DNA from: Muricea muricata
Taxonomy: Eukaryota; Cnidaria; Anthozoa; Malacalcyonacea; Plexauridae
Direction: 5' to 3'
Length of the DNA stretch: 64,000 bases
Assembly (NCBI GenBank): GCA_963855995.1
Contig: OY979724.1
Coordinates: 13,825,032 to 13,889,031 of the forward strand
Shown here: positions 6,445 to 51,096 of the stretch, piece by piece
Position numbering within the stretch: the stretch's first letter is position 1
Layout: each line of letters begins with the position of its first letter
Notes under the pieces: generated by a model
Database searches by the model: none
Seen by the model: only the letters and a program-made list of their open reading frames with translations
What the model was told of the DNA's origin: nothing
Made by a program: the position numbers and the translations under genes

Positions 6445-9400
6445 CTATCTCGTGTGATAATTCTCTGTGTTACTATCGCTATTTTCGTCATACTGTTGGT
6501 CATTCCACATGACTAGATTAGGGAAGCAACATCCGACTTGACACTCTGAGCGACATTGCCCTGGAGAGCAGTAGGACGGGCAACGTACAACTGTAGGGTA
6601 GCTGGCAGGCACGGTACTCTGGCTTGAACAGCACAATGGCTGACACGTGGAAGTGCAAGAGGACGGTCCACAACTTGAGGGACAATAAACTGGCGAATAT
6701 GGAGAACCACCTATAACAAATTACAAACATTCTTAAATTGTTTGCGTTGAAAGGCGCAGTATCTGTTGGACTGGTCATTCATCAGGCTTGTGGAACTGGT
6801 CATTTGCAGATTGTTGCAAACAACATGTATTTATACCATAAAAATTTTTAGCAATAAGCTTGCAACAAAGCTACCATTAACAAGCTGTAGCAAGCCATAC
6901 GAACGCATCCTTATATCTGCCTTTTGCAAGAAGTCTGTTGCGAGATGTGAACAGAGATTGCACGTCTGTAACTACACAGCCAAAAACGCCACAGGCTTGT
7001 TGCAAGTTGTCAATTTTACCGGCTTGTTGCAACTTGTTGACAACTTGCAACAAGCTTGCCGTCAACAAGTTGTCGCAAGCCATGCAAACGCATCCTGATA
7101 TCGGCTTGTTGACAACAATGCTGTTGCAAGTTGTCAACAAGCTTGTTGCAACTTGGGCGTTTTTGGCTGTGTAGGTAAGCAGCGCTTTAAAAACGAAATA
7201 ATTGCCAACAGAAATATTGTCTATCAATAAACAAAGGTTTACTTACCAAAGTTTTCAGGATTGCTCACTGGAGGAGCAGCATTTGTCTTTGGTGTGACTG
7301 AACCTGGGGCAGGGGTGGTTTCTGGGCTAATTGGAGGTGATATGGGAGGTTGAGGAGTTGGAGATTTTCCTATTGGTTGGGTTGGTGGACCAGGTGTGGC
7401 GGCAGTTTTAGGTGGTGATTTACCAACAGTCTTTGGTTCTATTACCTTGTTCTTCTTATCTGGAGAGATCGAACAGAATAAAGTTGCAGCAAAGTATAGT
7501 TTTGTGGAAACACAACGTAAATTTAGTATTGCAAAGTTTTCGAGCTGTGAGCTCGGATATTCATCAGCGCTAATAATGAGGAACCAAAGCTTTGCGAAGA
7601 TGAATTTACGTTGTGTTTCCACAACATTATACTTCGATATATTTATAATCACCATGCAAACATACAAAAAATAAAACCATTTTAAGAGAACGTTCTGTTT
7701 AGAAAGACACCTCTCTAATAGACCGACCTATGAATCCAACAATCGTGTCCGAAGTATCACAGCTTGTGGAGAATGTTAGTGGGTCCTCTGGTCGTCCTTG
7801 ACTACTAGAAATACACTTGCCACTCTTGATTTCCATCAGCGAACCACTTCGGGTAAACTTAAACTGCAAAGCATGAGGCGTATTGTATCCAGGTCTATAT
7901 AGAGTGCAGGGGTAGTTCAGTATAACTCGATCACCGTGAGCTGTTTCAAGGGGGTCACCATTTTTCACTCCTTGAATACACATGCCGCTGACCAGATGTT
8001 GGATGACACCATCGCGATGTAGCTTGAAGATGTTGGGTAGTTTACCACAAGGATCCATTAAAACAATTGCTGATCCAGGCCCTGGGTGCAATTTTGATCC
8101 CGCAGGTTGGATACATTGAGAATACGATAGGAACTTTAGTGATGTTGCAGGATATGCTAGGGAAAATAACACGCAACATAATGATTAGTTTACCTGGTCA
8201 GGTTTCCCAGCTGTCATTTCATTTACATGTGCACCACAGGTAAATAGTTTAGAACTGATAGAGCAATAAACATAGATATTAGTACATAGATAAAGCTAGT
8301 TTGATTTACGAAGAACAGTTTAGAACTGTAGAGCTATCTAGTATAAATAAAGTTAGTTTAATTTAGGTTTCCTCCTGTAGTAACACTGGATCAATAAGAG
8401 ATGATCCTTACTAGACCTCTAGGAGGAACAGTTAGAGCTGATAGATAGTTGTTATGCATACTAAAGTTCTACTCACAGTCAGTGACATTTTTCAAGAAAG
8501 GTTTTGACGCATCTAACCAAGAAGAAAGGACAACCTCGTAAATTATTTCTTCCTGGAAAATGACCAACACCTACAAAGAAACATTGAGCATCGAAATAAT
8601 TTTCTTTTGTCAACTGGTAAGGTTTTCTCCTTCTGGTAGATATGTAGGAGTGGATTAATAGCGATTGTTGAGTATGCGATTTCTCACCAGAACATTACTA
8701 ACTTTCACTAGTTCACATCTATAAAACCTAGAAAATCCTAGACGAGGCATAAGCAAGTCTTTACTGTCGTGTCTAACCACAATGCAATGTTTGACGTAAC
8801 AGCGTCAGCCTAAGCTACATGCTAATGTGTTTGAAATGAAAAGCAAATAATGGCAAGACCTTTTCAATTTTCCAATTTGGCGAACTTGACGAAATGTCTT
8901 GGCGCATCCGGATTTTTAACAGCGGTCCCAGATAGTCTACTTGTACTTGGAATATTTTGGTACTAGAAAAAAAGATTGTAATCATGACTTTAATGTGTCT
9001 TGGTGTTATCCATACTCAGGTGAAAATGATGTTTGTGGTGTTATTCTAAGTTTCCATCCACACTAGGCCAGCTGAAAAATATGCCTGACTACGGCGGAAA
9101 TCGAACTTACGAACTTTGATACAAGAAAATGATGAATACTAGTTTAGTTTTCAGATACGATTTCTTACTTGGATGCTTCAACTGTTGATTCCAATGTTGG
9201 ACTTTTGAGATGAATTTCGGAGCTGCTACTCAAGTCTCCATAGAGAGTTATATAAGCTTGTGCCTTTGAGCCTTTCTTTGGTACGGAGCCAGTATACACA
9301 ATAATGTTATATACCACACCAGGTTTACTGGGGGTAACAGTTGCGGGGGGTTGAGGTGCTGGTGGCGCGGGTGTGGGAGGTGCTGGTGGCGCGGGTGTGG

Positions 9401-12400
9401 GAGCTGCAGCTGAGAAACAGAGATATAGATGTGAATATGTTTCATAATTGAAACGAGATAGAGTTAGAATAATAGCCTGGGCACAAACCTGAGTTTCGAT
9501 ACGTGACAATTTAAAGTGGGTTGAGAACTAGGAAGCCTCCCTAACCCCAAAATTTGCCCCGCTGCAAAACGTAGGTTTGTGTCGAAGCTAGGAACTGGGT
9601 ACTCACAGCTCTTTACTTTAAATTCAAAAAATTGATTCACTTTGTTGATCCATGCTTGTGCTGGAAAGTCAAACGGTTGTTCCTCTTGCGTCAGGACGGA
9701 AATCTAAACGGAGTACGTCAATAAAATGCGAAGATCACCTCAGAGTTGCTTGATTTTGTTTGGTAATTTTCACTAGTGTATCATATGTAGTGCAGTTTTT
9801 CTGGGTATTTAGAACTTACGTTGTCTAAATACCAATTATCGCCTTTGTCATCCCTCATGACTTCAATTTTAGTAAGCTTTACGAAGTCATTGTTATCTTC
9901 AATGGTAAACGTGTTGCTTCTAAAAGATTCAATGATATATTTTGATATTCCGATGGCATCACATGCAACAATACTAACAAAATATAAATGCATGAGAAAT
10001 TTTTGTAAGCAGCCCAACGACAGAGTTTTGAAGTGTTTGTATCATGTCAGTCTCAGTCGATCAAACTGGAAGAATGAATGCGCATATGCGCTCATGAATG
10101 CGTATACGACTAAACTTTGATTTAAACAAGAAAGATGAAATCTATCACAACTTATTTAAAAAAAAAAGCATACTAAAATTTGTAAAATTGCAATTAAGTT
10201 TTGGTGAAGAAATATTGTAAAACACGAAAAACAAATTCAGCCGCGAAAATGGTGATACGAACAAACATACACAAATTTTTGCAATTTCGCAAGGCTATAT
10301 TTTCCGTATTTTACAACAATTTATTCCAGAACTTTGCCTTTCAACTAATTTTAAAATGATCTTTCTAGCTGTTGTGGAAGACTTGCCTATAGATCCAAAT
10401 TTAGTTGAAGATGTAATTTCTGAAGACACTAACATACAATAGGAAAAAAAGGAAATCTTACGATGCTTGTTCAAATGTGGACACAGACGCTGCCCCAGTC
10501 AGCTGTAATGGAGGTGTAGATGCAGCTACTCCAGTTTTTTTAGTTCCAAATAATTTAATATAGACTTTAGCTTTGGTCCCCGCGTCTTTCACATTTCCTG
10601 TCTTAACAGTTACTGTGTATTTCACTAAGACAAAAAAACATTTATTGCCGAGAGAAATGTGCTTAGTTAAAAATTTTGTAATCGTTACACGTTTTCACAG
10701 GGTCACGTACCTTTTGGTGTGTTTGGGACAGGTTTTACAGGTTGTACTTCAGGAATAACAGGTTTAACAGGTTGTACTGCAGGGGTAACAGGTTTTACAG
10801 GTTGTACTGCAGGGGTAACAGGTTTTACAGGTTGTACTGCAGGGCTAACAGGCTTTACAGGTTTAACTAAAGAAATAAAAAATGTATTATCCTGTTGTTG
10901 TACGAGTCTTTTCAATTCATGTAATTGAAGACTGATAGATATTGTGTACCTGAAATCAAATTTGTCACAGAATAGTATTTATCCTTCTTCTCTAACCAGA
11001 AATCGGCATTAAATTCGTATCTTTCTTTTTCTGTTTCAACAGTAAGCTGCAAATATAGGACAGTCCAACCACTTTAATTTTTTGGAAACGGATATGGTTA
11101 GGATAGGTTAAATTTATAAGGAGTGGTATTTTCACAAAATTATAGTAATTGATATATTCACCATTAGAACTTACAAGGAATTTATAGGATGGCTTTTTTT
11201 TAAAAAATTGTCCACAATGAAAGCAGAAATGATATCAGAAACACAGGCAAGAACTAATTATTCTTATGCCTTTATCAACCGATATATTGATTACCTTATC
11301 TAGTTGCCACTTATGAAAAAATGAAAATCCCGATATCATAACTTTAACTTTGTTGATACTTGTCAAGTCTTTATTACTTGTAAGATTGGGAAAAGTATCC
11401 GTCCTGTAACAACAAAAATTGTTGTTGTGGTTATTATTAATTTCGATTTCTTACTCCCAGTTGAGCACATGCTGTTAAAGCACAGTGTGCCTCTCATCAG
11501 GCACAGAAAACAAGTCTGCTGTGGTATTTGAGTTGAGTTCTCGTGCAGTTGATCTCGCTTGTGCTCCGAGAGTTTTTCTCCGTGTACTCCAGTCTTCCTC
11601 CCTCTTCAAAAGCAACATATATCCAGGTCGTACGGGCCCACAGTAAATGACCACGTGCTGTGGTGGTGATACGGCCATTGAGGCGAAGCTTAAAATATTG
11701 GTGAAATATCCTGATGATTAAAATATTAAGCTTCGTCACCTCAGGCAGGGCAGGGCAGGCACCACCTCAACGACATATGCCAATTACTGTGGGGTTGTAT
11801 CATCTAACCTATACCCTGTTAAAGGGAAATGGCAACAAAAAATTTTATTGTCTCATTTGAAAGAGACTCTAAAATAATAAATAGAAGTCTATTTCAAAAT
11901 TTTATATCTGTTTTACTTCGGGAGATATTCTCACCTAAATCAACAAACTATCCGCCATCGAAAATCCTCCTAAATACCTACCAACAATCAAATATTGTTT
12001 GAAACCTTGTCAGTCCGCGCTGAAATCCGAAATACTTGCCGTACATGTGGTCATGAGAGCATATTAACCATTGTGTCGTAAGAAAAAAAATCGCGTGATC
12101 CCAGTTGTGACGTATCGTGCATATCCTCAAATATCTAAGATGGCGGACAACTAAAGATTTCAAGTCAAAATATCTCACCAAATAAGGCAGATATAAGAAT
12201 TCTGTAGTAGACTTCTGTATATTGTTTTGGAGTTTCTTTCAAATGAGACGATACATAAAAAAATTTGTTGCCATTTCCCTTCAACTTTCACTTGACTCGT
12301 AGTTTTTTTTCCACATAAGGACAAGGACTTGGTTCAAGACATATTGAGAAGCTTCTGAGAAAAATCCAGCCCACAGCCTTAAAGAAAGACAAGTGGTTTG

Positions 12401-13767
12401 CCCTCTTCTCTACCGAAGCCCCAAGCAGAGCAAAACTTACCCGCAGCTTTCAGTGAACAACAACAACGTCTACCAAACTTACTTTCCACTTTCAAATAAA
12501 TTCTTCAGCTTCTTGTCTTTTTTCAATTTAATTTTGTTGGTAGATTCAACCAGTCCTGTTTGTCTGGACTTTCCGTAGATCTTGATAGCAACATTACAAT
12601 CAGTTCCTGCACCATCCAGAAATTTCTTGCCAGTGCCAGTCTTCACGATGACCTTATACAGCGCAGCCTCTGGAAATATTCAAGATTGTTTCCTTAATCG
12701 AGACTGCAAAGCATGTATGGATTGTTCGGAGGGACAGTGCGATAAAAAGCACCAGTCATAAGATATAGAACGAATTGTGCAAACAACCTCTGAGGTTATT
12801 CCTTTAAGATAAACTAGGCATCTTTTGTATTTCCAAATTGAACTTTTAAAGTTTCCTGTCACTTTGCATTGTCTCTTCAATTGGTCTGTAAACGGTCTTT
12901 AATTGTGAAATGAATGCATTACCTTCATTGGTTTGTCAGTCAGGCGAAACTAACACAAACAGAACTAATAATTCAGGACTGAATTAAATGCGGTTCATAC
13001 ATGCTCTAGAATGTGGTCTTTTAAATCTCGAAGCATTAAACCTCAACTTAACAAAGGCAGAAGGAGAGAGGAGCTTAAAAGCCTCAGCGAGATATATAAT
13101 TTTACAGATGTTAAGGAGCTTCCCTAGAAATTATTGCTGCTGTAATCTTCAGGTTATAAGATTAAGGCTTCGAGCCTCAAAAGACATTCGATCTTAAATT
13201 AGAACTGCTAATGCTGGCTCTATTATCTTTTACGCTAAAATCAATGTTGTCTCATTCGTTGACACTAATTACTAATTTAAAATTATTGTTGGTACAATAC
13301 AACGAGCTTCCTCGAGGACCAAAGGACTGGTGACCATTTTATATACTTTATATAACGCACAATCCTTTTACATTTAAAAAAAATCACTAGTGTGAACATT
13401 AAGGCGGCCTAAGGCCTATCATCACACTATCTTAAGATCGATGATTTAACACATGAATGCTTTTAACACAACTATACGCGATGTGAACGTTAATATAACG
13501 CGTTGTTTTTATAACAGTATTTTTATTCTAAATATTTAAAGGTAAAGTTAGCATAGTTGGAATTAGCATTAAGAATTAGAGGAAATGATATCGTTAGGTG
13601 AAAAAGAGCAATTAAGTCATCCTATTATATTTAAATTAACGTGAAAATGTTTAAATAGATTTCATTAAGGTTTTAAAAACAAACTAAAGAAGCATTAACT
13701 GACCTGAATATATGTTCCCCAAAACAAACACAATAAAAAGACTGAAAAAAATATTTTCACCCGTCAT
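6445..13767 (-). CDS. Secreted PLAT x3 / beta-trefoil / minicollagen-type CRD x2 protein (gene B)
   Basis: Fourteen exons join in one frame to 772 residues: 13767-13704, 12669-12483, 11403-11295, 11046-10950, 10866-10711, 10624-10462, 9919-9820, 9703-9607, 9409-9169, 8962-8860, 8570-8477, 8156-7728, 7459-7247, 6710-6445. Order: signal peptide (1-21, hydrophobic FFSLFIVFVLG); PLAT 1 (22-152, YKVIVKTGTGK...GAGTDCNVAIKIYG); linker of PVKPV-x3-AVQ repeats (153-204); PLAT 2 (205-324, KYTVTVKTGNVKDAGTKAKV); proline/alanine linker; PLAT 3 (about 355-470, VVYNIIVYTGSVPKKGSKAQ); beta-trefoil-like module (471-613, starts SYPATSLKF, with FKLHRDGVIQHLVSGMCIQ and FKFTRSGSLMEIKSGKCI repeats); proline-rich spacer (614-684); two cysteine-rich domains (CPSSCGPSSCTSTCQPLCC and CPSYCSPGQCRSECQVGCC). 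PLAT domains usually bind lipid or protein; the CRDs cross-link by disulfides in nematocyst walls. Role in the capsule is inference. It lies next to its relative, gene A. Confidence 0.87.
6972..7174. repeat. MITE-like element rich in TTGTTGCAAG, in gene B intron
   Basis: Ends are exact inverted repeats (CTACACAGCCAAAAACGCC on the left and its complement on the right). The interior is many direct and inverted copies of TTGTTGCAA and TTGTTGACAA, so the whole 203-bp block can fold on itself. Confidence 0.85.
7491..7636. repeat. Palindromic MITE-like element, family 2 (copy 1)
   Basis: About 145 bp with long inverted arms (left GTGGAAACACAACGTAAATT, right complement AATTTACGTTGTGTTTCCAC) around a centre containing CATCAGCGC. 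It lies in the intron between gene B exons 12 and 13. A diverged copy is at 58426-58596. Confidence 0.85.
8255..8470. repeat. 114-bp dispersed repeat, about 1.5-2 diverged units, in gene B intron
   Basis: Contains the family landmarks TTTAGAACTG(A)TAGAGC, GTATAAATAAAGTTAG, AGGTTTCCTCCTGTAG and TAACACTGGATCAATAA. The same unit occurs at 15125-15330 and, as clear 114-bp tandem copies, at 37920-38365. Confidence 0.8.
8996..9115 (-). repeat. SINE-like fragment (family with 33833-33990), in gene B intron
   Basis: On the minus strand it reads GTAAGTTCGATTTCCGCC (similar to a tRNA B box), then GGCATATTTTTCAGC, then AATAACACCACAAACATC. The same order of blocks occurs at 33833-33990. Promoter A box not found, so a SINE origin is only likely. 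Confidence 0.55.
10150..10395. repeat. Diverged relative of the 30990-31375 palindromic element
   Basis: Shares ordered blocks with that element (GCAATTTCGCAAGGCTATATTTTCC, TATTTTACAACAATTTATTC, CAACTAATTTTA, TCTAGCTGT) and has a weak complementary left arm (AATATTGTAAAACACGAAAA). Lies in the intron between gene B exons 6 and 7. Confidence 0.6.
11819..12284. repeat. 466-bp palindromic element in gene B intron
   Basis: Left end TTAAAGGGAAATGGCAACAA and right end TTGTTGCCATTTCCCTTCAA are inverted copies. Complementarity continues inward (GTCTCATTTGAAAGAGACTC against GAGTTTCTTTCAAATGAGAC, then AGAAGTCTATTTCA against AGTAGACTTCTGTA). No open frame of note. MITE-like. Confidence 0.85.
13008..13192. 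repeat. 185-bp inverted-repeat element in gene B intron 1
   Basis: The left arm (GAATGTGGTCTTTTAAATCT then CGAAGCATTAAACCTCAA) is matched by the complement of the right arm (GAATGTCTTTTGAGGCTCGA then AGCCTTAATC), with several mismatches. No other copy seen in the window. Confidence 0.65.
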
Positions 13768-14453
13768 TTTGTGAGTTCATACAGGCTATGTCAAATTAAA
13801 TGACTCGCGAGCCTTTTAAAATGAAGGTTTAAACAAAACTTCAGTCATAACAGCGCTCTCACCAGCGAAAAGGCAGGTGGGAACGGGTCAACAACAAATA
13901 ACAGTGTCAAAGCAAAATATTTGTTCAAACTCCAATTGCAAAATGTGTTGATCTGACTAACTCTGACAAACATTGTACTCTATTTAGCCCTGTTTGTTAC
14001 TGGATGTAAAATACTTGAAGAAAACAACCAACGCGGCGGTCTAGTGTGGGTAGAGTTCTAAAATACGCTTTGTTTTTTTTTATTGTTATATTTGTCTGCA
14101 CCGCCAAAACATTTATTGTTTCTGTAAATTAACGTCTTAATGTTTTTAAATACTATTACTTTAATTTGAGTTTTAAAATATATATTTACTATACAGATTT
14201 AATTTCAACACGTACATTTCAGGCCATTTTAGGTTGCCTTAAGCAATCAACAGGTTTAGTATTTTATATTGAATTATAGAATTAAGCACTATGTCCTTTT
14301 ACAGTACATTAAATTATTACTATATGATCAGGTTAGTTTATATATATCTTAACAATATTCTTATATTTTTTATGTACATCTATAATCTTCTTAAAATCAG
14401 TATTAAAATTAATGGTCATCCGAATTCTCTTCTTACCAGACTGCAACAAAACT
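13768..14453. promoter_or_regulatory. Intergenic between gene A and gene B (gene B 5' flank)
   Basis: 686 bp between the gene A stop and the gene B start codon, both genes on the minus strand. It should hold the gene B promoter and the gene A 3' UTR. It is A+T-rich, and I see no repeat family member and no clear TATA box. Confidence 0.5.
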
Positions 14454-17400
14454 TCAACAACAATTAAAAGGGCAAGAAGGTCGACAATGTTTCTTGCATC
14501 CGCTTGGACATTCTTGAGTCTCAGGCGTGAATGATCCTGCTCCTTGACCTGCAGAATTAAACAAAACAGTCAATTCTTTACTTTTCTTTTGCGTGTTTCT
14601 TTAAACTAGTCATTTACCAGTCACAACAACTTTCCTAGTGTGAAGAAAATAGAATAGCTCGAGCAAGAGCGTTGACAGATTTTTGAAGAGAAATGCCGGT
14701 GCTTCAAGCCAGTTACAGACGATCAGGTTCTCTGCACTTGTTCAAAAGCTAACAAGGTAGCCTCTAGACAATGGCGCACTTGTCACAGTAAAATGCTGGC
14801 AACGTTGGGCGGGCAAACGAGAAAATTCTATTTGCCATAGAGAAACTTAGCCCACCCATCAAAATTTGTCAATAAATACAAAATACCTGCACAACAGTTC
14901 TGTGGACATTGGTCGGACGGACATGTCTGAGTGGTAGCACAATTACCAGGACATGAACTCTGAGAGGATTGCGACATTTCTTGATCATCTGGATAGTCTG
15001 TGTTGCAACAGGATGAAGTACACGAAGGATAGCAACTGGATGAGCATCCATTGCCACATGAACCAGAACCTACATTAAACAGAACCATGATAAAGTTATC
15101 CAAAAATGATAGAGTTATCTGGTATGAATGAAGTTAGTTTAGGTTTCCTCCTGTAGATTGACTGGATCAATACAGATGATCCTAACTAGACTTCTAAGAA
15201 GAACCGTTTAGAACTGATAGAGCTATCCAGTATAAATAAAGTTATTTTAATTTAGGTTTCCTCCGGTAGTAACACTGCATCAATAAGAGGTGATCCTTAC
15301 TAGACCTCCAGAGGAACAGAACTGAAAGATATATGCAATAAAATGTTCTATCGATGCTTCACTGTCACCACGTACAGGGAAAATCCTGCATACCTGGTCT
15401 TTGTAGTCATGATGAAATTACAAGCTATGCATAAACGACAAAATCAATAACCAAAGAAATGAGATATTTGTTAAAACAAGCTCACTTGACTGTGTGTACG
15501 ACGTTCCAGTACCACAACACGACTGAGTGCAAGATGGATAACACGTGGACGAACAGGATGACCCACACTGACTCGCGGCTGAAGGAAAATGAAGATAAAT
15601 ATAAAAAAACCCACTCTGACAAGCTGGCGAAATAAAGAGTCAAAGCTCTCGTTTCTCTCATTCACTTTGAGCTAGTTCAAATGTTATCAAAAATTGCTCA
15701 GAGTTTTTGCTCGTTTAACCAGTAACATCACTCAACTCACATCATCGTTTAATCAGACCATGAGAGTGGAGGAAAATTTACAAGAAAACTCTCATCACTC
15801 AAAGTCGTAAGATGACAAAAGGCAGACCAAACTGTAGTTAAACTAACGTTGCTACTGTCAGTAATGCAGTCAAAAGCACACGTACAAAAACATTGGATCT
15901 TATACTGCCTGGAACGATCTAAACGGAATTTTACATTTTGTTCCTTAATCGAGACGAAGAGCCCTTCCCTCGAAACTGAATTCCGGCTGTGAAAAATCCT
16001 AAACTAGAATGTAATCTAGGTCGACCAACCTGGGTTATTATAGGTCTCCTGAGTCTGGGTGGCGGGGATCGAAGGTGTTCCAGATGAAGTTACTTGGGTT
16101 CCAGACGAAGTGATTGGTGGTGAGGATTGTGTTTCAGTTTCCGATACAAACTGATTCTGTGTTTGATCTGAAAAAGAAAATGAAGAAAGGTTATTGACAA
16201 TGCTGCAGTAATCATTATATTAGCAATGAACATTATATTGGCGATGATTTATATTTGTAATGATCATTGATGATAATTTTAACGATTATTATAGTGTTGA
16301 TTGGTGATATTGATACAATATCATAACATAATACAAAACTAGCCCAGCGAGCAAGTAATACCATAACTCACCATACATCTCAACAGAAGATGGCACGGAT
16401 TGACACGACATGAGCATGACACGTTTATTCTGATATCCAATGCACAGTCTAGTTTCATTTTCTTGCAGATATGACTTGAGGTCTGTTACACTTCGTCTAC
16501 TACGTTCCATCTTGCTGTGAATCACGTGTTGTCTTTTAAACTGTTCTTCATTGCCTCGCCCACCAAACTTTACATAATGTCTGAGTCGTACTGCATTCCT
16601 ACTTCGTCCTTCAGGTAACGTACCACTTAACTCTTGGTTAGGGCTTGATGTGAGCGTAAATGCGAGCTCAGAATAAGGCTTTAAGTAAAGATCTAAAGGT
16701 CGGTTGGTATGGCTAAGTAGACTTCTCCTGTAATCGCTACTGGTGATGAATGGCTTCGTTCTGTGGTGGTAGTTATGCTGAGGATAGCGTCGAATTGTTT
16801 GTAACGTGTTCGTTTCTGTATTCTTTGGAGTGTCAATAGTACCCGAGGTGAGCAGTTTACCATATGTAAATTTATTGTGAGCATTTGCGAGGTTACCATC
16901 ATCATGGTTGAGATACTCGCCATCAGCCAGTCTGCCACCAAACAGTTTACCACCAGCTAGTCTATTGCCAACCAGTCTACCGCGATCCAGGCTACCACCA
17001 GCCAGTGTAACACCTATACCATCAGTACTGGTGAGTTTATAACCAGGATGACCTTGGTTACCACCATCATAATTGAGATAGCCACCAGCTAGTTTATCAC
17101 CAACCAGGCTACCACCAATACCAACAGTACTGGTGTGTTTAGAATTACGAAGACCTGGGTTACCACCATCATTATGAAGGAGTTTATTACCATTGATGAA
17201 AAGACTGTCAGCCTGTGGATTCGTATTACCATCAACATTATTACCATTAACAGAAGAGCTACCACTTGAAGGATTTTTATTACCATCAACATTATTACTA
17301 TTAGCAGAAGAGCTACCACCCAAAGGATTTTTATTACCATCAACATTGTTACCATTAACAGAAGAGCTACCACCCAAAGAATTTTCATTACCATCAACAT

Positions 17401-19574
17401 TATTACCATTAACAGAAGAGCTACCACCCAAAGGATTTTTATTACCATCAACATTATTACCATTAACAGAAGAGGTACCACCCAAACGATTTTCATTACC
17501 ATCAACATTATTACCATTAACAGAAGAGCTACCACCCAAAGGATTTTCATTACCATCAACATTATTACCATTAACAGAAGAGCTACCACCCAAAGGATTT
17601 TCATCACCATCAACATTATTACCATTAACAGAAGAGCTACCACCCAAAGGATTTTTATTACCATCAACATTATTACCATTAACAGAAGAGCTACCACTCA
17701 AAGGATTTTCATCACCATCAACATTATTACCATTAAAAGAAGAGCTACCACCCAAAGGACTCTTATTACCATCAACATTGTTACCATTAACAGAAGAGCT
17801 ACCACCCAAAGGATTTTCATTACCATCAACATTGTTACCATTAACAGAAGAGCTGCTACCCAAAAGATTTTCATTACCATCAACATCATTACCATTAACG
17901 GAAGAGCTGCTACCAAGTGGATTCTGATTACCATCAACATTACCACCAAATGAGGAGGTACCACCAACATTACCACTAGCTAAGGAGTTACTACTAAGAA
18001 GATTGGTTACATCACCAACATACAGTCCACTGGCAATATGTTGAAGTTTCCCATCTTCAGTGATGCTAAAGAAGGCATCAAGTGTTCTACAATCGTAACG
18101 TAATGCCAGTCTTGTGATGACGGGGGGTGGCAGCATGGAAAACACCGGGTTAACACAAAGACCATTCTCTGTGAAACGGATAGATGTTGCAGGATATTCT
18201 GAAAAGTAACACAGTATGAATTGTAACTGGTAAGAATCACTGTGGGTTCTAAACTAGTGGACATATTCTACAACAAGCTGTCGTGGTTTGTATCTGAACT
18301 ACCTGAACAACATATCTCAAACGTGGTGGTCTAGTGTAGGTAGTATTCTACAATGAGCTGTCGTGGTTGTGTAAACTAACTGAAATATTTCGGGACTTCA
18401 AACCTCTACGAAGTGGAGCTTCTCTTGTAGTTTGATTAGTGATAAGCGATTTGTTAGACATCGTTCCTGTTGATGATGTGCTCGGAAGAAAATCATACAC
18501 GATTTTGTTGTCTTTCACAATAACAATCTAAAAATTCCAGAAAGTTGTACAGTATCTTAAAAGTGTTAGAACATTTATGATATTTAAACTGACCTTGCTA
18601 AAGTCTGGCAGAGCGTTATTACTGAACACGAGGACAGAAGATAATCCAGTCATGGGTTTAATCATCACGCGATAAACCAATGGCCTAAAATACATTTAAT
18701 TAATTTAATCACACATTGAGAATATCAGTAGACGAACTTATTTTCCTTTCTCATTTTAATTCGTTCACATTTTAATGCTCTCTTTCAAAACATATCACCA
18801 TTACTTACTTAGCTCTAAGAAAACGTCTGAAGTTTAGTTTTTCTGTATTCTCATTGCGTAAACGAATCCCTTCACTTTGAAGATCGGAGGCTTTCAAGAC
18901 AATGCTTATGTCGGAATCACCAAGATTTCTTTGATTCCAATACATTATAATGTCGTGTTGAACTATATAAAAAATATGGATAAAAAACTAACGTTGCCAG
19001 TGTAGGTAGTGCAGTAAGAACTACAGGAAAAAATGGAATTTTCAGAAGTTAACATTCCCCTACCATCTTCCCCACAAAGGGCCTTAATTTCGCTCGAGGC
19101 GTGGAATTCTATTCGTTTTAAGTAGTGAAAGAATTTATATCATTCGTGAACAAAATATGAAAGCAAGTATCTCTGGGTGTAAACTTTTTACGTGCTGGTA
19201 AAAGCCTTCAATAACCTTGACGTTTCTTCAAACAAAAATAGCCACCTTACGAGATAGAACAATTGTATTTTATGGTGAATATAGGAGTAATAGGATGCAG
19301 GGTATACCTTCGTTTTGATCCAAGGGAATAGTGGTCCTTGCAGTGTTTGGAGCTGCAATCTTGTTTTTTCTATTCTTTGAGAAAAAATGTGGACGTTTAT
19401 CTAAAAAATGTTTGCAACAGAGAATTTTAATTCGCTGTGGTAGTGTTTAGTTTTGATTCCAGTAAAGTGACGATGATATTTCAATGCCAACTAACCCTTG
19501 TCTCCAACAGCAAAATGCGCATAAAGAAGACACCAAACCGAAAAGAACCATACTGTTTCAGAAAATGAATGCAT
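14454..19574 (-). CDS. Secreted diverged-PLAT / beta-trefoil with 54-bp repeat insertion / minicollagen-type CRD x4 protein (gene A)
   Basis: Ten exons join in one frame to 958 residues: 19574-19496, 19400-19308, 18962-18809, 18684-18594, 18527-18404, 18198-16372, 16167-16030, 15578-15486, 15069-14887, 14548-14454. Order: signal peptide (1-24, VWFFSVWCLLYAHFAVG) followed by DKDKR, a dibasic cleavage-type site as in minicollagen propeptides; diverged PLAT (58-180); first part of a beta-trefoil-like module (181-250, YPATSIRF...GKLQHIASGLYVGDV); 18-residue repeats (265-508); Gly/Asn/Leu-rich stretch; the apparent trefoil remainder (about 640-785, with LCIGYQNKRVMLMSC) including a furin-like RSRR; a Ser/Thr/Pro spacer (790-835); four CRDs: CGSSCSSTCYPSCTQSCC, CGNGCSSSCYPSCTSSCC, CPGNCATTQTCPSDQCPQNCC and CPSGCKKHCRPSCPFNCC, the last one directly before the stop. 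CRDs 1, 2 and 4 have exact x3 spacing. Likely disulfide-linked nematocyst capsule protein (inference). Confidence 0.87.
15125..15330. repeat. 114-bp dispersed repeat, about two diverged tandem units, in gene A intron
   Basis: Two copies of AGTTAGTTTAGGTTTCCTCC-type sequence with GGATCAATA and GATGATCC between them; the units carry small deletions compared with 37920-38365. It lies in the intron between two CRD exons. Confidence 0.8.
17215..17945 (-). repeat. 54-bp coding minisatellite in gene A (about 13 copies)
   Basis: Each unit encodes an 18-residue repeat close to SSSVNGNNVDGNENPLGG. Copies differ mostly at K/E and single substitutions (for example V to A or F). Because the unit is a multiple of three, other frames on both strands also stay open over this stretch. 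The product would be flexible, hydrophilic and Asn/Ser/Gly-rich. Confidence 0.95.
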
Positions 19575-22614: not shown

Positions 22615-23361
22615 TCAAAACCTGCAAACTTCTTCTTCAACTCTTTGTTGTGCATATTTCATCAATTCCTCTCGTCTAATATGTTTTGCATTGCCAATAT
22701 AAATATGACGAAAATCTCGGAAACCCATCAATCCAAAAATAGCTTTTAAATATGGCACTTGAAAATCCAGTGATTTCATCGGCTCGTTAGAAAAGTCTGA
22801 TGATGATGAGGTAATTAGGAGTAACGGTCGGCCAATAACGAGCCCCTCTGGCCCGTTAGCAGTGTCAGAGAATGTTAAATCAGATTGCACAACACAGTCA
22901 ATATATTGTTTGAGCACATAAGGTACACTGTAGTTCCACATTGGACAGCTAATAATCACTTTGTTAGCAGCCAAGAGTTGAGACGTCATTTCTTTCACTG
23001 CCAAAAGTTTTAATTTATCATCAGCAGTTTCTTTTCCAGAGTTCTCTCTCATTTTGCTCTCGACATGTGATAAACTAAAACTAAGTAGTTTTTTATCCCA
23101 CAGATGAATTTCTTCAATTACATGTTCCGGATACAGTTCGCCATATTGCATAAGAAATTCATTTGCAGTTTGACCAGTCAAAGATCTGCTATCAGAGCCA
23201 GAACTATTCAAATAAAGTACCTTACAGACTGAAAGATCATCTTTGCCACAACTGGAATAATTTCTGCAGATATTCCCAGAGATATTCCGTTTGTTTACGA
23301 ACCAGAACCACGAGAAAATTGTCCTTTTGTACAAGGTTGAAAGTCCAACTCCAGGAGCCAT
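22615..23361 (-). CDS. AzoR-like FMN-dependent NADH oxidoreductase (flavodoxin-like fold), intronless
   Basis: A single 248-residue frame without introns. Residues about 45-248 match the bacterial azoreductase AzoR family (FMN-dependent quinone/azo reductases, two-electron transfer from NADH): strand 1 KVLYLNSSGSDSRSLTG, FMN-contacting CPMWNYSVPYVLKQYID (E. coli form is PMYNFNISTQLKNYFD), NGPEGLVIGRPLLLITSSSS, and PYLKAIFGLMGFRDFRHIYI. The first about 44 residues (MAPGVGLSTLYKRTIFSWFW then Arg/Ser/Asn-rich) are not part of the bacterial family and look like a mitochondrial targeting sequence. The lack of introns in an intron-rich neighbourhood, plus the bacterial-type family, suggests horizontal transfer or retrocopying. 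It is convergent with NUDCD3. Confidence 0.88.
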   Translation of the reverse strand: MAPGVGLSTLYKRTIFSWFWFVNKRNISGNICRNYSSCGKDDLSVCKVLYLNSSGSDSRSLTGQTANEFLMQYGELYPEHVIEEIHLWDKKLLSFSLSHVESKMRENSGKETADDKLKLLAVKEMTSQLLAANKVIISCPMWNYSVPYVLKQYIDCVVQSDLTFSDTANGPEGLVIGRPLLLITSSSSDFSNEPMKSLDFQVPYLKAIFGLMGFRDFRHIYIGNAKHIRREELMKYAQQRVEEEVCRF

Positions 23362-23383
23362 ATTGATTTGGATTCTTGAGTTT

Positions 23384-23423
23384 CGCGCGAGAACTCCCGC
23401 GCGAGAACTCCCGCGCGAGAGTT
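23384..23423. repeat. 14-bp CG-rich direct repeat just upstream of the AzoR-like gene
   Basis: CGCGCGAGAACTCC occurs twice in tandem and is followed by a third partial copy (CGCGCGAGAGTT), starting 22 bp upstream of the start codon at 23361. It is the most CpG-dense spot nearby and resembles TCTCGCGAGA-type core promoter motifs. It may serve both this gene and the end of the QRICH2-like gene. Confidence 0.6.
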
Positions 23424-37368: not shown

Positions 37369-40300
37369 ATGGCAGTAATGGTGTGCGTTCTGTATCTTTT
37401 CACAAGAACTTCACTTCCCTTCAAAGGTAAATTTAGATTGTACTACCATAATTTAAGTTTGATTTCCTCCACAATATTTTGTGTGGTATTAATATCGAAT
37501 TATGCTTTGTATAGAGCGAATAAAGTTGCATATGCAACAAAAATTCACCAATGAGAAAGGTAACATATTTGATAAATCAATGATATTAATTCGTAAGTAA
37601 TTTCTATCTTTGTTGTTTCACGGCTATCATTACCTTGCAGCCGTGCAAGCATTTGCTGCTGATTTTCTCTCAATTTCTCTCGATTTTTTTCTGCAGAAAT
37701 ACGAGAAAAACGCCATTCAAAAAGGCTAGACAAGCAACCATTCATGAAAGATCAAATTTTGACTGACGCATTGCTGGGAATTGAGAGACATGGGAAATTT
37801 CCCGAAGATGACCCCTGTCCATATTTGGGAGTACGTAAACCATTAAGAGGTAGCAGATATCCAAATGAATATAATGATATCACATGTAAACCTCACAGGC
37901 AAGTAATATGGATTGTTTTCAGCTGTAGTAACAATGGATCAATAACAAATGATCCTTAATGGATCTCTAGGAAGAATGGTTTAGAACTGATAGAGCTATC
38001 CAGTATAAATAAAGTTAGTTTAGTTTAGGTTTCCTCCTGTAGTAACACTGGATCAATAACAAATGATCCTTAATGGACCTCTAGGAAGAATGGTTTAGAA
38101 CTGATAGAGCTATCCAGTATAAATAAAGTTAGTTTAGTTTAGGTTTCCTCCTGTAGTAACACTGGATCAATAGGAGATGATCCTTACCGGATCTCTAGGA
38201 AGAACAGTTTAGAGTTGATAGAGCTATCCAGGATATTAAGTTTAGATTATACTTATTTGTTGTAAGTCCCAGTTTAAACTAGTACTTACAGCAAATAAGT
38301 ATAAAGTAAACTTGACATGCTGGATAGCTTTATCAACTTTAAACTGTTCTTCCTGCAGCGGGATCTGTGAATTTACAATGGCGAGCTAGAGCGAAGCGTG
38401 AGCCATTGTCAATCGCAATAAGATCAGCTTGCGAATTCATCAATGCATTTCTTTGCTTTTTTGTCCATGGGGTCAATTCACCGCTTCATTGACGCACTAC
38501 TAGAACCTCAATTACTATTGCAACTTCGATAAACATCCTTCTTTCTTAATTAGTATTGTTAACTTTCATAAACATTTCTTTTTCTGATCTTTATAGCGAT
38601 TTACTTACAAATTATCTATGATTTTACAATACAGGCCTAATGTAAACGACTGCGAACAAGCTTACGAAATCTACGGCTCAGCCAGCGAACTCCAAGAAAA
38701 GGAATGTGACGAAATCAAGTATGAAGACCTGTGCAAATTTCAACCTAATGAACAATCAGAATACTACAAGTTGCAATGTGATTGGTCAATCTGTTTCCCG
38801 CGCAAACCGTACATCGGCAGAATGAGCTCACAATATGGCAAGGTTGTAAAATGGATTTATTCACCAAGCGATTCCAAAATTGAAGAATTTATCCACAGTA
38901 GCATAAAAATTGGATTCAATTTTGTCTTTTTTAAATGTGGCAGCTTGAGGCAGGTCCTGCCATTACCAAGAATAATAAAACTATCAGCGAAAAGAGAGAA
39001 GGATGCTAAGATAAATGTGAATATAATATTAATAGACTCCATATCACGTCCACATTTTTACCGCTCAATGCCACGGACTATCAACGCACTACGTCATGTA
39101 GTGTATAATCAAAGTATTCCAGCAACAATATTGGACTTTGAACTGCTGCAGAGTGTGAGTCAACATACGATGGACAACTGTAGACCACTCTACTCCGGAG
39201 TGACCTCAGGTAACGTTATGTATCCAGTTATATCAAGGCTTATCCATTATCGTACTTGTTGTACCTAGCGTGAGCAATGCTAATGACTTATAATTGTCAA
39301 TCATTCCCTTCTGTTCCATCTTGTCTACATAGATCAACTCTTTCGTGGTGTTTCCATAAACTAAAACATCTTTTTCAATGTTACTTGCTAGGGGTGTACA
39401 CGGAATTCAGCAGCAAATGGAGGAAGTCGATCAGATCACTGGGTATACCTGTGTTGTTTGGTGAATATAAGAAATCTGGTTACCAAACATTATTCCAAGA
39501 AGAAGGCTGTTGGTATGACCATTGGGGGCTTATGCTAACTGATGTTGAGAGATACTCCACCCCGTTGAGCCGGGCAGGGCTTGCCAAGAGGTAGGAGGGA
39601 ACACTGTATCCTTTATCATTTCGTAGCAGTTTTGTCTTGGGTACGCGATGAACAAACAACACTTATAAGTCTGTACAAATCTTTTTCAATCCAGATGGAA
39701 AGAGTTACAAACTCGTTGGAAGGATTACAACATTGACGATTTTGGCCTTACGCATTTCACATGCGAAGTTGTCAAGCAATATGGTCAGACTAACGATCTG
39801 GACATACCAGATAAAGTTTGCTTTAATGGTGATTTTATCAGCACATACTATCTCAAGTATCATCTGGATTACCTAAGGTAAAAGTTTATATAGATCCAGC
39901 AGCATTAAATCAGACCTGGATCTCATTGTTCTTGCATTGACCTGAAGTGTCTTTATTATTTAACGCAAACTCGTAGCTCGTTGCGAATGATTTCACTCAA
40001 TTGTAACAAAGGTACTATTAATCGTCATATTTTCCGCACGGTGTATAGTCAGATGTATTCTAGTCTCGGATTTCAGCTGTTAGGATCTCGATCACCACTT
40101 GTCTAGGCGACGAAAGAGACTCTTAAATGGTCATCTTTCACCCTGTTTAGACCAAAAGGCATCGCGATTCAAGATGACTTCGATATTGTCCTAACAATTT
40201 CAATTATTTTGAAACGACAAATGAGCATTAACTTATTTCAATTATTTTCTCTTAGAGCAATCCGTGATCACAAGACCTCGCTCCCACTCCTCCACTATCT

Positions 40301-41647
40301 TCATCTCATCACCGGCCACACTAGTACAGGAACACGCATTCGTAATGATGACGTCGGCCTGGCCAATTACGTTAGTGAGCTTTCACATGATCCCAATACG
40401 CTGACCATATTTCTATCAGATCACGGGCACACAAGAACAGAATTTGGCCGAACGCTCGAAGGTCGTTTTGAACTCTCTAACCCACTAATGTTCGTTATAC
40501 TTCCGGAAAACGTCGCGAAAATTCTCGGGAAAAATAAAGTGCGCTCATTGGTCGAAAACCAACGACGACTATTCACGACTCTTGATATACATCGGATGTT
40601 GATGGCCTTGAACAATCCAGTTAAAAAGCAGTCAGGTGATTATCAGGTGAATGGTATACTGTCAGTGTTGCCTAGCAACCGCACGTGCGAAAACCTGCCT
40701 CTCACCCCCCTGACCAGATGTAAATGTGAAGGTTGGGATCAAAAGGTTCAAGATAATTCTCAGAAACATGTTTGGCTGGCCGAGTTCGCCGTTGGTGAAC
40801 TCAATAACATGATCCAGGAACAGTTTATGAAAGGTAAGATACATCAATCGATTTTGAAGAACTCGCTCTAAGAATCTAGAGAAAATTTCATGGAGAACTT
40901 TTCTCAAAGCTCGTCTCCACTTGTGGGTCTTCAAAGAGCAGATTTGAGATCAATGCTTATCAGGTTAAATGGAACCGAAGTCATGTCAAACATCTCAATT
41001 TCCCTCTAGGAAATAGTACCGGAGGTTACGGCTCATGCGTACGACTGAGGGGCCTGGAAACGAAGAACAACCTCGAGAAACAAACCGCAAAAAGACTAGG
41101 GATAACCATGGACCTTTTGGTACAATCTGCACTGCCAAATATAGTTGAAGTTTTTCAAGTTCTGATTGAAACACCATTGCTACCAGACGAGACTACTGCC
41201 TCAGCAGAGTTGGTCAAGTTTGATAGACATACTTTATACAACCGTTATCAACACTGCGTCGATGATACTGTCGATATAAGACTGTGCGCATGCGCAGCGA
41301 AACATAACGATGAGTCTCCGATCACCTCCGACGGCATCCGAAGTTTAGCAACTCGTAAAATGTTCGGAGCAGAGACGAAAGCGACAGTGCTTGAACAAAG
41401 TAAAGGATGTCTACTTCTATTGAGCCGAAAGCAAAATTTCAGCATTGCATATGAAGTAGCAAACCTCTGTGATGGCGTCTATGAATTTACGTTTCATGGC
41501 GAAGCATATAACATGTTATTAACAGCTAAGCTGCCATTAGTTCTTACAGTTCAACCTAAGACAATATATTTTCTATTCTCCGCAATAAGATATGTAGTTA
41601 ATGACAGTTATTTAGATATTCGTACTAATCTTAAACTATTGCGCTGA
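37369..41647 (+). CDS. DUF229 sulfatase-like type II membrane protein
   Basis: Seven exons (37369-37426, 37697-37898, 38635-39209, 39392-39590, 39695-39877, 40256-40833, 41010-41647) give 810 residues in one frame. A hydrophobic N-terminal segment (MAVMVCVLYLFTRTSL) suggests a signal anchor. The start is uncertain: open sequence (KRVKLFIA) precedes this ATG behind a possible splice acceptor, so an upstream exon may exist. The body is the DUF229 family, found as large gene sets in nematodes, insects and cnidarians: KINVNIILIDSISRPHFYRS, TLTIFLSDHGHTRTEFGRT (metal-site DHG), LMFVILPENVAKIL, a cysteine-bearing C-terminal part (YNRYQHCVDD, LCACAAKHN). It belongs to the alkaline phosphatase/sulfatase superfamily, but the sulfatase C/S-x-P-x-R motif is not seen where expected; activity unknown. 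Intron 2 uses a GC donor. Confidence 0.87.
37920..38365. repeat. 114-bp tandem repeat, about 2.7 units, plus an inverted partial copy (foldback)
   Basis: AGGTTTCCTCCTGTAGTAAC recurs at exactly 114-bp spacing (38028 and 38142). Units run from the exon 2 donor region to about 38230. Then, after a spacer with its own inverted arms (ATACTTATTTGTTGTAAGT against ACTTACAGCAAATAAGTAT), the complement of part of the unit appears (GGATAGCTTTATCAACTTTA, AACTGTTCTTCCTGCAG). It lies inside the GC-AG intron of the DUF229 gene. Confidence 0.92.
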
Positions 41648-45051: not shown

Positions 45052-50588
<5,537 letters not shown>

Positions 50589-51096
50589 CCCTGATACACA
50601 AACTGTACACCAGAGATTTACGAAGTATGAATAGTATACTCTAGCTACTGTTTAAGCCAAGGATTATCTTTCTGAGGTGTTTAATTAAAGCAAACCAGCT
50701 CTTAGATGTACATCTACTCATACATGACAGTTCAGAATGCCTCTGTACAATTGTTGATATTCCAAAACGTTTAAACGTCAGTACCGTCCCAAATTTGAAC
50801 TCGCCAAATTCAAATCTTCTGATTAACGAAACTGCGGCGTTCTACGCACTAAATTCTCAGGTTTCAAATCCCTGCTCTAAAAAACGTTGCGCGAGACTTG
50901 TTTTCGTGTCGCAAATGAATATATTCAAGGATAAATACGAGCTGACAAGAGTATTAATTGCCAAATTCTGCGGTGCCAGCTGCCTGTCGGACCACGGTTA
51001 CTCGGACGGGACTCGCTTTCGTGTGATATGCTTTGGAATGGTCAAGGTTGAGGTTTCTGAATATAAAACTATATAAAAGCCCAGCTTGTTGTTGGC

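What the first reader, a model, noticed from the sequence alone, without database searches (positions are those of the whole stretch)
6445..19574. Tandem pair of PLAT + beta-trefoil + minicollagen-CRD genes: candidate undescribed nematocyst capsule family
Two adjacent same-strand genes share signal peptide, PLAT, Y-P-A-T-S trefoil-like module, low-complexity spacer and C-terminal CRDs. Minicollagen CRDs are established in minicollagens, NOWA and other capsule proteins. I do not recall a family that joins them to PLAT domains and a trefoil lectin-like fold. PLAT or lectin domains anchored by CRD cross-links could coat the capsule wall or tubule.
Basis: partly seen in the sequence, partly recalled or inferred. 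Interest (0 to 1): 0.88.

Follow-up and report, generated by a model that had tools for sequence, protein, structure and literature searches.

The report
Octocoral NOWA-like lectin proteins
Two neighbouring soft-coral genes appear to make secreted proteins that join lectin-like and PLAT domains to the kind of cysteine modules that cross-link stinging capsules, a combination I have not found described.

Summary
The finding holds up well. Two adjacent minus-strand genes span exactly 6445-19574. Gene A (14 exons, 772 aa): signal peptide, three PLATs, ricin-type trefoil, Pro-rich linker, two CRD-like modules. Gene B (10 exons, 958 aa): signal peptide, PLAT-like region, trefoil interrupted by an 18-aa repeat array, four CRD modules. 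PLAT in B rests on intron phases (1-2-0-1, as in A's three PLATs), not on sequence. Predicted Dendronephthya proteins show the PLAT-trefoil-CRD join, a Xenia one trefoil-CRD. A profile of 10 Cys modules ranks NOWA (E 5e-6) and minicollagen CRDs as the top six of 177,635 PDB sequences. Three B modules are canonical CX3CX3CX3CX3CC; both A modules have one extra residue. No other trefoil copy reached E 1e-3 in this 453-Mb genome (8 candidates scored). Best reading: a family that works like NOWA, CRDs locking lectin/PLAT heads into the capsule or tubule. No expression data were reachable, so cnidocyte location is inferred. PLAT is not new to nematocysts: Nematostella NEP-15 carries one. New variant of a known kind.

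The parts
6445..13767 (-). Gene A, 14 exons, 772 aa: SP - PLAT - PLAT - PLAT - trefoil - Pro-linker - 2 CRD-like modules
   Evidence: splice model; P0001 of Dendronephthya gigantea 49% identical over 96% (made with the 790-aa version of the model)
13704..13767 (-). Gene A exon 1, signal peptide
   Evidence: most hydrophobic 12-mer of the protein
10950..12669 (-). Gene A PLAT 1 (exons 2-4), intron phases 1-2-0-1
   Evidence: 48-57% identical to PLAT units D1, D3, D5 of P0001; phases
10711..10866 (-). Gene A exon 5, KPV-type linker repeats
   Evidence: 30-bp tandem repeat 10728-10863
9607..10624 (-). Gene A PLAT 2 (exons 6-8), intron phases 1-2-0-1
   Evidence: 51-53% identical to D2, D4, D6 of P0001; 5-lipoxygenase top PDB hit, E 3.5e-6; phases
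8477..9409 (-). Gene A Pro-rich linker and PLAT 3 (exons 9-11), intron phases 1-2-0-1
   Evidence: best Pfam PLAT stretch, residues 376-479 of the 790-aa model; phases; donor of exon 10 is weak
7728..8156 (-). Gene A exon 12, ricin-type beta-trefoil (starts YPATS)
   Evidence: Ricin_B_lectin E 4.8e-4, below cut-off; 71-73% identical to D. gigantea, 57% to Xenia
7247..7459 (-). Gene A exon 13, Pro/Thr-rich linker
6628..6684 (-). Gene A CRD-like module 1, C-X3-C-X4-C-X3-C-X3-CC
   Evidence: the first Xenia P0008 module, at the same place in order, is canonical
6526..6582 (-). Gene A CRD-like module 2, C-X3-C-X4-C-X3-C-X3-CC
14454..19574 (-). Gene B, 10 exons, 958 aa: SP - PLAT-like - trefoil with repeat insert - Ser/Thr linker - 4 CRD modules
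   Evidence: splice model; P0003 of D. gigantea, E 3.1e-47 for residues 1-240
19496..19574 (-). Gene B exon 1, signal peptide
   Evidence: most hydrophobic 12-mer of the protein. The D. gigantea model P0003 shows no such start
18404..18962 (-). Gene B exons 3-5, PLAT-like region, intron phases 1-2-0-1
   Evidence: phases; profile-profile probability only 28.6%
16372..18198 (-). Gene B exon 6, trefoil split by a long repeat insert
   Evidence: first part 97.6% profile-profile with gene A; last part not shown to match
17225..17942 (-). In-frame 54-bp minisatellite, 13.3 copies, 92% matches, 18-aa unit inside the trefoil exon
   Evidence: spacing 54
16030..16167 (-). Gene B exon 7, Ser/Thr-rich linker
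15486..15578 (-). Gene B exon 8, CRD 1 (canonical)
14887..15069 (-). Gene B exon 9, CRD 2 (canonical) and CRD 3 (X3, X5, X4, X3)
14454..14548 (-). Gene B exon 10, CRD 4 (canonical); the protein ends at its CC
   Evidence: NOWA CRD top PDB hit, E 0.03

Best explanation
These are two paralogous, secreted, modular matrix proteins of octocoral stinging capsules that work like NOWA. Shown: both are conserved protein-coding genes with a hydrophobic start, N-terminal PLAT and trefoil modules (PLAT in B by gene structure only) and C-terminal arrays of six-Cys modules whose nearest solved relatives are NOWA and minicollagen CRDs. Inferred: in the maturing cnidocyst the C-terminal CRDs exchange disulfides with each other and with minicollagen CRDs and so become covalently fixed in the wall or tubule polymer, while the trefoil (lectin fold) and PLAT heads stay free to hold a partner such as the glycosaminoglycan matrix of the tubule. 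B has more and more canonical CRDs and would be the stronger cross-linker, its Ser/Asn/Gly repeat acting as a flexible spacer. A has fewer, irregular CRDs and more heads.
For: Profile of 10 Cys modules: the top six of 177,635 PDB sequences are NOWA (E 4.8e-6 to 2.9e-5) and mini-collagen (0.024-0.055), next hit 0.89. A profile of the 8 gene-A-type modules, Xenia included, still ranks NOWA first (E 0.01-0.041; no mini-collagen listed). Three B modules have the canonical spacing and the proline that Tursch et al. give as position 11. PLAT, trefoil and two modules in D. gigantea P0001 and P0002; PLAT-like region, trefoil parts and four modules in P0003; trefoil plus two modules in Xenia P0008. Borders between modules are phase-1 introns in the models. 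NOWA precedent: C-type lectin plus multiple C-terminal CRDs, tubule location, proposed lectin-chondroitin zipper, knockdown reported to block invagination (PMC10014300 passages). A PLAT protein is in the Nematostella nematocyst discharge proteome.
Against: No expression or proteome evidence was reached. The CRD link is a 19-20-position profile dominated by six Cys, and the 10 modules left out 4 of the 14 then at hand, among them the irregular third modules of B and P0003. Gene A's modules as a single sequence do not find NOWA and lack the conserved spacing and proline; B's exon 9 did not find A's modules in the genome (2 candidates scored). No Pfam family matched the Cys modules. No canonical B module has V/I at position 4 and only one of three has P at 14, so the strongly cross-linking C-CRD fold is not predicted (rule). 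The trefoil stays below the Pfam cut-off and, by eye, its QxW motifs are degenerate (motif recalled), so sugar binding is unproven. The P0003 and P0008 models lack an evident signal peptide. Both structure predictions were useless (mean pLDDT 33.9 and 32.7).
Confidence: 0.6

Rival explanations
1. Extracellular surface, mucus or cuticle glycoproteins made outside cnidocytes; the Cys modules are convergent or were borrowed for cross-linking a coat.
For: Hydra PPODs are beta-trefoil proteins of the cuticle that bind sulfated glycans (PMC3531485 passages). A weakly similar open frame of this genome (E 0.8; no Pfam match) sits beside a F5/8 type C domain, with no CRD pattern in 20 kb around it. No expression data tie the genes to cnidocytes.
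Against: The nearest solved relatives of the modules are NOWA and minicollagen; three B modules have the exact canonical spacing.
Confidence: 0.2
2. Soluble capsule cargo released on discharge (as NEP-15 was), not a fixed structural part.
For: NEP-15 with a PLAT/LH2 domain is listed among the 20 proteins released from Nematostella nematocysts, with the count 1 in the table (PMC3627010 passages); nematogalectins were also found there.
Against: Two to four CRDs at the C-terminus predict covalent fixing; no CRD is mentioned for NEP-15 in the passages seen.
Confidence: 0.13
3. Organic-matrix proteins of sclerites or axis.
For: Octocorals make sclerites, and sugar-binding proteins are numerous in the Corallium rubrum skeletal matrix (PMC7853314 passages).
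Against: In the main texts of two octocoral skeletal proteome papers a term search gave no PLAT domain, ricin or minicollagen (supplements not seen).
Confidence: 0.04
4. LOXHD1-type mechanosensory hair-cell proteins, as NCBI's name for P0001 suggests.
For: P0001 is named lipoxygenase homology domain-containing protein 1-like; LOXHD1 was reported as specific to hair cells in Aurelia (PMC11250803 passages).
Against: LOXHD1 is made of PLAT domains only and has no secretion signal, trefoil or CRDs (recalled); gene A has all three. The name follows the PLAT repeats.
Confidence: 0.03

Closest known systems
NOWA (nematocyst outer wall antigen, Hydra; four NOWAs mentioned for Nematostella in PMC12549020)
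   Same: Secreted protein with a lectin-type head and an array of minicollagen CRDs at the C-terminus
   Different: NOWA's head is a C-type lectin (plus an SCP/CAP domain, recalled); here PLAT domains and a beta-trefoil, with no C-type lectin, CAP or collagen match in Pfam at E<=1
Minicollagens
   Same: CX3CX3CX3CX3CC modules (in B) beside Pro-rich or Ser/Thr-rich stretches
   Different: No Collagen match in Pfam at E<=1, no N-terminal module, 772-958 aa long
NEP-15 of Nematostella (XP_001632785)
   Same: PLAT/LH2 domain in a nematocyst protein
   Different: Only PLAT is listed in the table seen; its sequence was not compared here
Hydra PPOD proteins
   Same: Secreted cnidarian beta-trefoil proteins
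   Different: Two tandem trefoils said to derive from bacteria, cuticle location, no CRD-module or PLAT mentioned in the passages seen
LOXHD1 and lipoxygenase PLAT domains
   Same: Tandem PLAT domains; 5-lipoxygenase is the top PDB hit of PLAT 2 (E 3.5e-6)
   Different: Signal peptide, trefoil and CRD-like modules added

Membership tests
Minicollagen/NOWA CRD module | Cys pattern CX3CX3CX3CX3CC (PMC4863159) | tested here: met
   Gene B: 3 of 4 modules exact; gene A: 0 of 2 (X3,X4,X3,X3), so not met in A; Xenia P0008: 1 of 2
Minicollagen/NOWA CRD module | Conserved proline at position 11 | tested here: inconclusive
   Present in the 3 canonical modules of B and the canonical one of Xenia; absent in both modules of A (sequences, rule)
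Minicollagen/NOWA CRD module | Profile similarity to solved CRDs | tested here: met
   Top six PDB hits are NOWA and mini-collagen (10 of 14 modules used); gene-A-type profile ranks NOWA first, E 0.01; gene A as a single sequence finds none
NOWA family | C-type lectin domain | tested here: not met
   No Lectin_C match in Pfam at E<=1 in A or B
NOWA family | SCP/CAP domain (recalled) | tested here: not met
   No CAP match in Pfam at E<=1
NOWA family | C-terminal array of CRDs | tested here: met
   B: 4 (3 canonical); A: 2, both irregular
Minicollagens | Central Gly-X-Y collagen tract | tested here: not met
   No Collagen match in Pfam at E<=1
PLAT/LH2 domain | Score over the Pfam cut-off | tested here: met
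   Gene A 112.8 bits against 23 (790-aa model). Gene B: no match, so not met in B
Ricin-type beta-trefoil lectin | Score over the Pfam cut-off | tested here: not met
   20.8 bits (A), 22.3, 25.4 and 19.5 bits (P0001, P0002, P0008) against 29; B and P0003 no match. Significant E-values in A, P0001 and P0002 make a distant relation likely
Nematocyst structural protein | Expression in cnidocytes or presence in capsules | not testable with these tools
   No transcript data or supplementary files could be reached

The most novel reading that the evidence does not exclude
Octocorals evolved their own capsule/tubule cross-linker family in parallel with NOWA: CRD-anchored PLAT-trefoil proteins kept as an unlike pair, one with variable numbers of heads (1 to 7 PLATs, grown by duplicating a two-PLAT unit) and one with an elastic repeat array inside the lectin fold and possible furin processing, together forming an octocoral-specific adhesive or zipper layer of the cnidocyst.
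Probability: 0.3. Interest if true: 0.65.

Novelty: new variant of a known kind. Interest (0 to 1): 0.52.

Why it matters
CRDs are the covalent glue of nematocysts. A new set of heads attached to that glue, seen so far only in octocorals, would show that the NOWA plan (binding head plus CRD anchor) has been rebuilt with other domains, and would give octocoral stinging cells concrete marker genes. The published Xenia single-cell atlas makes the central claim testable without new sequencing.

Tried and rejected
Structure prediction of P0002 and P0003 with five-row alignments failed (mean pLDDT 33.9 and 32.7), so no fold search was run. Searches (Pfam; homologues), 19 and 55 and the PLAT profile used the 790-aa version. 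The LOXHD1 reading was set low because of secretion signal, trefoil and CRD-like modules. A wider CRD gene set of this genome (its minicollagens, its NOWA) was not obtained: a protein search with CRD exon 9 of B returned only two exons of B (2 candidates scored), and the same with the CRD exon of A did not complete. PLAT alone is no marker: it is a large family here (148 matches among 150 scored of 330 candidates); the 8 loci fetched of those 148 show no CRD pattern in their about 3.3 kb, which says little. No family member was found by tblastn (E<=0.01) in the 40 kb below the window.
Full report
What was checked. The window lies in an unnamed assembly of 453 Mb in 74 contigs, at C9:13825032-13889031. 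Of the 8 homologous proteins found outside the window, 4 carry an organism name, and all 4 are octocorals: Dendronephthya gigantea (3) and Xenia sp. Carnegie-2017 (1) (lineages). I read the window as octocoral DNA, by inference from homology.

Gene models. A splice search anchored on open reading frames, with GT-AG borders and frame imposed, gave complete models on the minus strand (corrected). Gene A runs from 13767 to 6445 in 14 exons (772 aa), gene B from 19574 to 14454 in 10 exons (958 aa). Introns between modules are all in phase 1 in the models. Inside each of the three PLATs of A the introns run 1-2-0-1, and exons 3-5 of B show the same run. One donor (A exon 10) is weak, but its place is the same as in the other PLATs.

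Domains. Pfam finds PLAT in A (E 2e-32) and a Ricin_B_lectin match below its cut-off (E 4.8e-4); B has no Pfam match at E<=1 (run with the 790-aa model of A). The homologues behave alike: PLAT in P0001 and P0002, sub-cut-off Ricin_B_lectin in P0001, P0002 and P0008, no PLAT or Ricin_B_lectin in P0003. The trefoil of A is related to the first part of B's exon 6 (E 4e-6; profile-profile 97.6%). The last part of B's trefoil was not shown to match (hhalign P 0.027; shuffle fractions 0.602, 0.04, 0.363). B's PLAT-like part has a profile-profile probability of 28.6% (with one PLAT of A in its uncorrected form) and shuffle fractions 0.203, 0.018 and 0.247; I accept it mainly on gene structure.

Cys modules. 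A relaxed six-Cys pattern, written after seeing the modules, hits 6 places in the six-frame translation of the window, 3 of them the canonical CX3CX3CX3CX3CC; all lie in these genes, and none occurs in 200 first-order Markov windows. B has three canonical and one relaxed module, A two relaxed ones. A profile of ten modules has NOWA and mini-collagen as its first six PDB hits (E 4.8e-6 to 0.055), the next being 0.89; the ten were chosen from 14 in A, B, P0001, P0002 and P0003, leaving out the irregular third modules of B and P0003 and one module each of P0001 and P0002. A profile of all eight gene-A-type modules (A, P0001, P0002, Xenia P0008) still puts NOWA first (E 0.01 to 0.041). The gene A modules as one sequence find nothing relevant. 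The last module of B alone finds NOWA first (E 0.03), with a defensin at 0.29 among the four hits. The first Xenia module, in the same order as A's first, is canonical and has the proline of position 11, which ties A's irregular modules to the family. By the rule in PMC4863159 (passages) the C-CRD fold needs V or I at 4 and P at 14: none of the three canonical B modules has the first, one has the second. N-CRD-like or intermediate folding is the likelier guess, which fits the statement there that the C-CRD is prevalent in medusozoans.

Relatives. Three searches of about 5.8 billion proteins: gene A gave 2 hits among 7991 scored candidates (candidates were capped); gene B residues 1-240 gave 5 among 1073, one of them the window's own frame; the profile of the PLAT3-trefoil-CRD part gave 3 among 5044, one of them a query row. 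That makes 8 distinct proteins besides the window's: P0001, P0002, P0003 (D. gigantea), P0008 (Xenia) and four unnamed ones (P0004-P0006, P0009). P0001 and P0002 join PLAT, trefoil and two modules; P0003 joins the PLAT-like region, the split trefoil and four modules; P0008 joins trefoil and two modules; P0003 and P0008 show no evident signal peptide. They are database models, so the joins are likely but not proven by transcripts seen here. P0001-P0003 report the same longest-contig length (3,203,178), and P0002 and P0003 bear the near-consecutive names LOC114519238 and LOC114519236, so the genes are probably linked there too; order was not seen. P0001 has 7 PLATs, P0002 one, A three. By identity they fall into three kinds: A1 with D1/D3/D5, A2 with D2/D4/D6, A3 with D7 and P0002, so the long form probably grew by repeating a two-PLAT unit. 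The search needs shared short words and filters by length, so absence in other cnidarians is not proven. In this genome the trefoil of A finds itself, B (E 6.7e-5) and one sub-threshold open frame on C1 (E 0.8; 8 candidates scored); the latter has no Pfam match, lies next to a F5/8 type C domain, and no CRD pattern was found in 20 kb around it. No member was found in the 40 kb below the window.

Literature. All 15 papers opened were seen as term passages only. PLAT and minicollagen as whole words occur together in four papers: in one, NEP-15 of the Nematostella nematocyst discharge proteome carries PLAT/LH2 (PMC3627010); in PMC8846589 PLAT belongs to a polycystin; in PMC6599738 it is a script name; in PMC12549020 no main-text use was found. 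In an octocoral venom paper and two octocoral skeletal proteome papers the main texts gave no lipoxygenase or ricin, and PLAT only as part of 'platform' or not at all. In the Xenia atlas, cluster 11 expresses minicollagen and nematogalectin, but the new genes could not be looked up.

How it probably works. [quoted passage not shown] it forms disulfide oligomers through them, sits on the tubule, and its knockdown raised early-invagination nests from 5.2% to 18%; a lectin-chondroitin zipper is proposed there. Genes A and B have the same plan with other heads. I take the CRDs as the covalent anchor and the PLAT and trefoil modules as binding heads. The anchor is supported by sequence, the heads' ligands are not. 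Sugar binding is doubtful: the trefoil is below cut-off and its QxW places look degenerate by eye (motif recalled). B's 18-aa repeat (13.3 copies of 54 bp) sits inside the trefoil exon, in frame, and the region also varies in P0003-P0006. A basic RSRR site follows it in B and in P0004-P0006, so cleavage into two chains is possible (inference).

Verdict. A real, conserved, apparently undescribed octocoral family; new variant of the CRD-anchored nematocyst protein kind; nematocyst location likely but unproven. It is not filed as NOWA or minicollagen, because the C-type lectin, CAP and collagen features were tested and not met.

Noticed in passing
17225-17942: 54-bp in-frame minisatellite, 13.3 copies, 92% matches, inside the trefoil exon of gene B; the insert differs in length and text in P0003-P0006.
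   Followed up: partly
about 16490-16510 (minus strand), gene B exon 6: Furin-like RSRR-S motif towards the end of the insert, also in P0004-P0006; KKR at that place in P0003.
   Followed up: no
37923-38231, about 8300-8470, about 15130-15320: A 114-bp repeat (2.7 tandem copies) with similar text in introns of genes A and B, as read by eye.
   Followed up: no
60221-61423 (minus strand): Open frame of 400 aa with a Cu/Zn superoxide dismutase match (E 4e-6) just under the Pfam cut-off; by eye perhaps several SOD-like units in a row.
   Followed up: partly
45052-45771 and 50064-50651 (minus strand): Two open frames that match the second and the first half of the Forkhead domain, probably exons of one gene.
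   Followed up: partly
38597-40871 (plus strand): Two open frames with DUF229 matches, probably exons of one gene.
   Followed up: partly
22615-23421 (minus strand): Open frame with a Flavodoxin_2 / FMN-reductase match, E 1.2e-36.
   Followed up: partly
L017 508-1932 (C1 near 102345871): Open frame weakly like the YPATS trefoil (E 0.8, no Pfam match) next to a F5/8 type C domain.
   Followed up: partly
G000 contigs C3, C5, C6, C13, C16 and others: PLAT matches with the same score and spacing recur on several contigs, many at coordinates below 0.4 Mb, as if a gene block near contig ends had been copied; most contig lengths were not seen.
   Followed up: no
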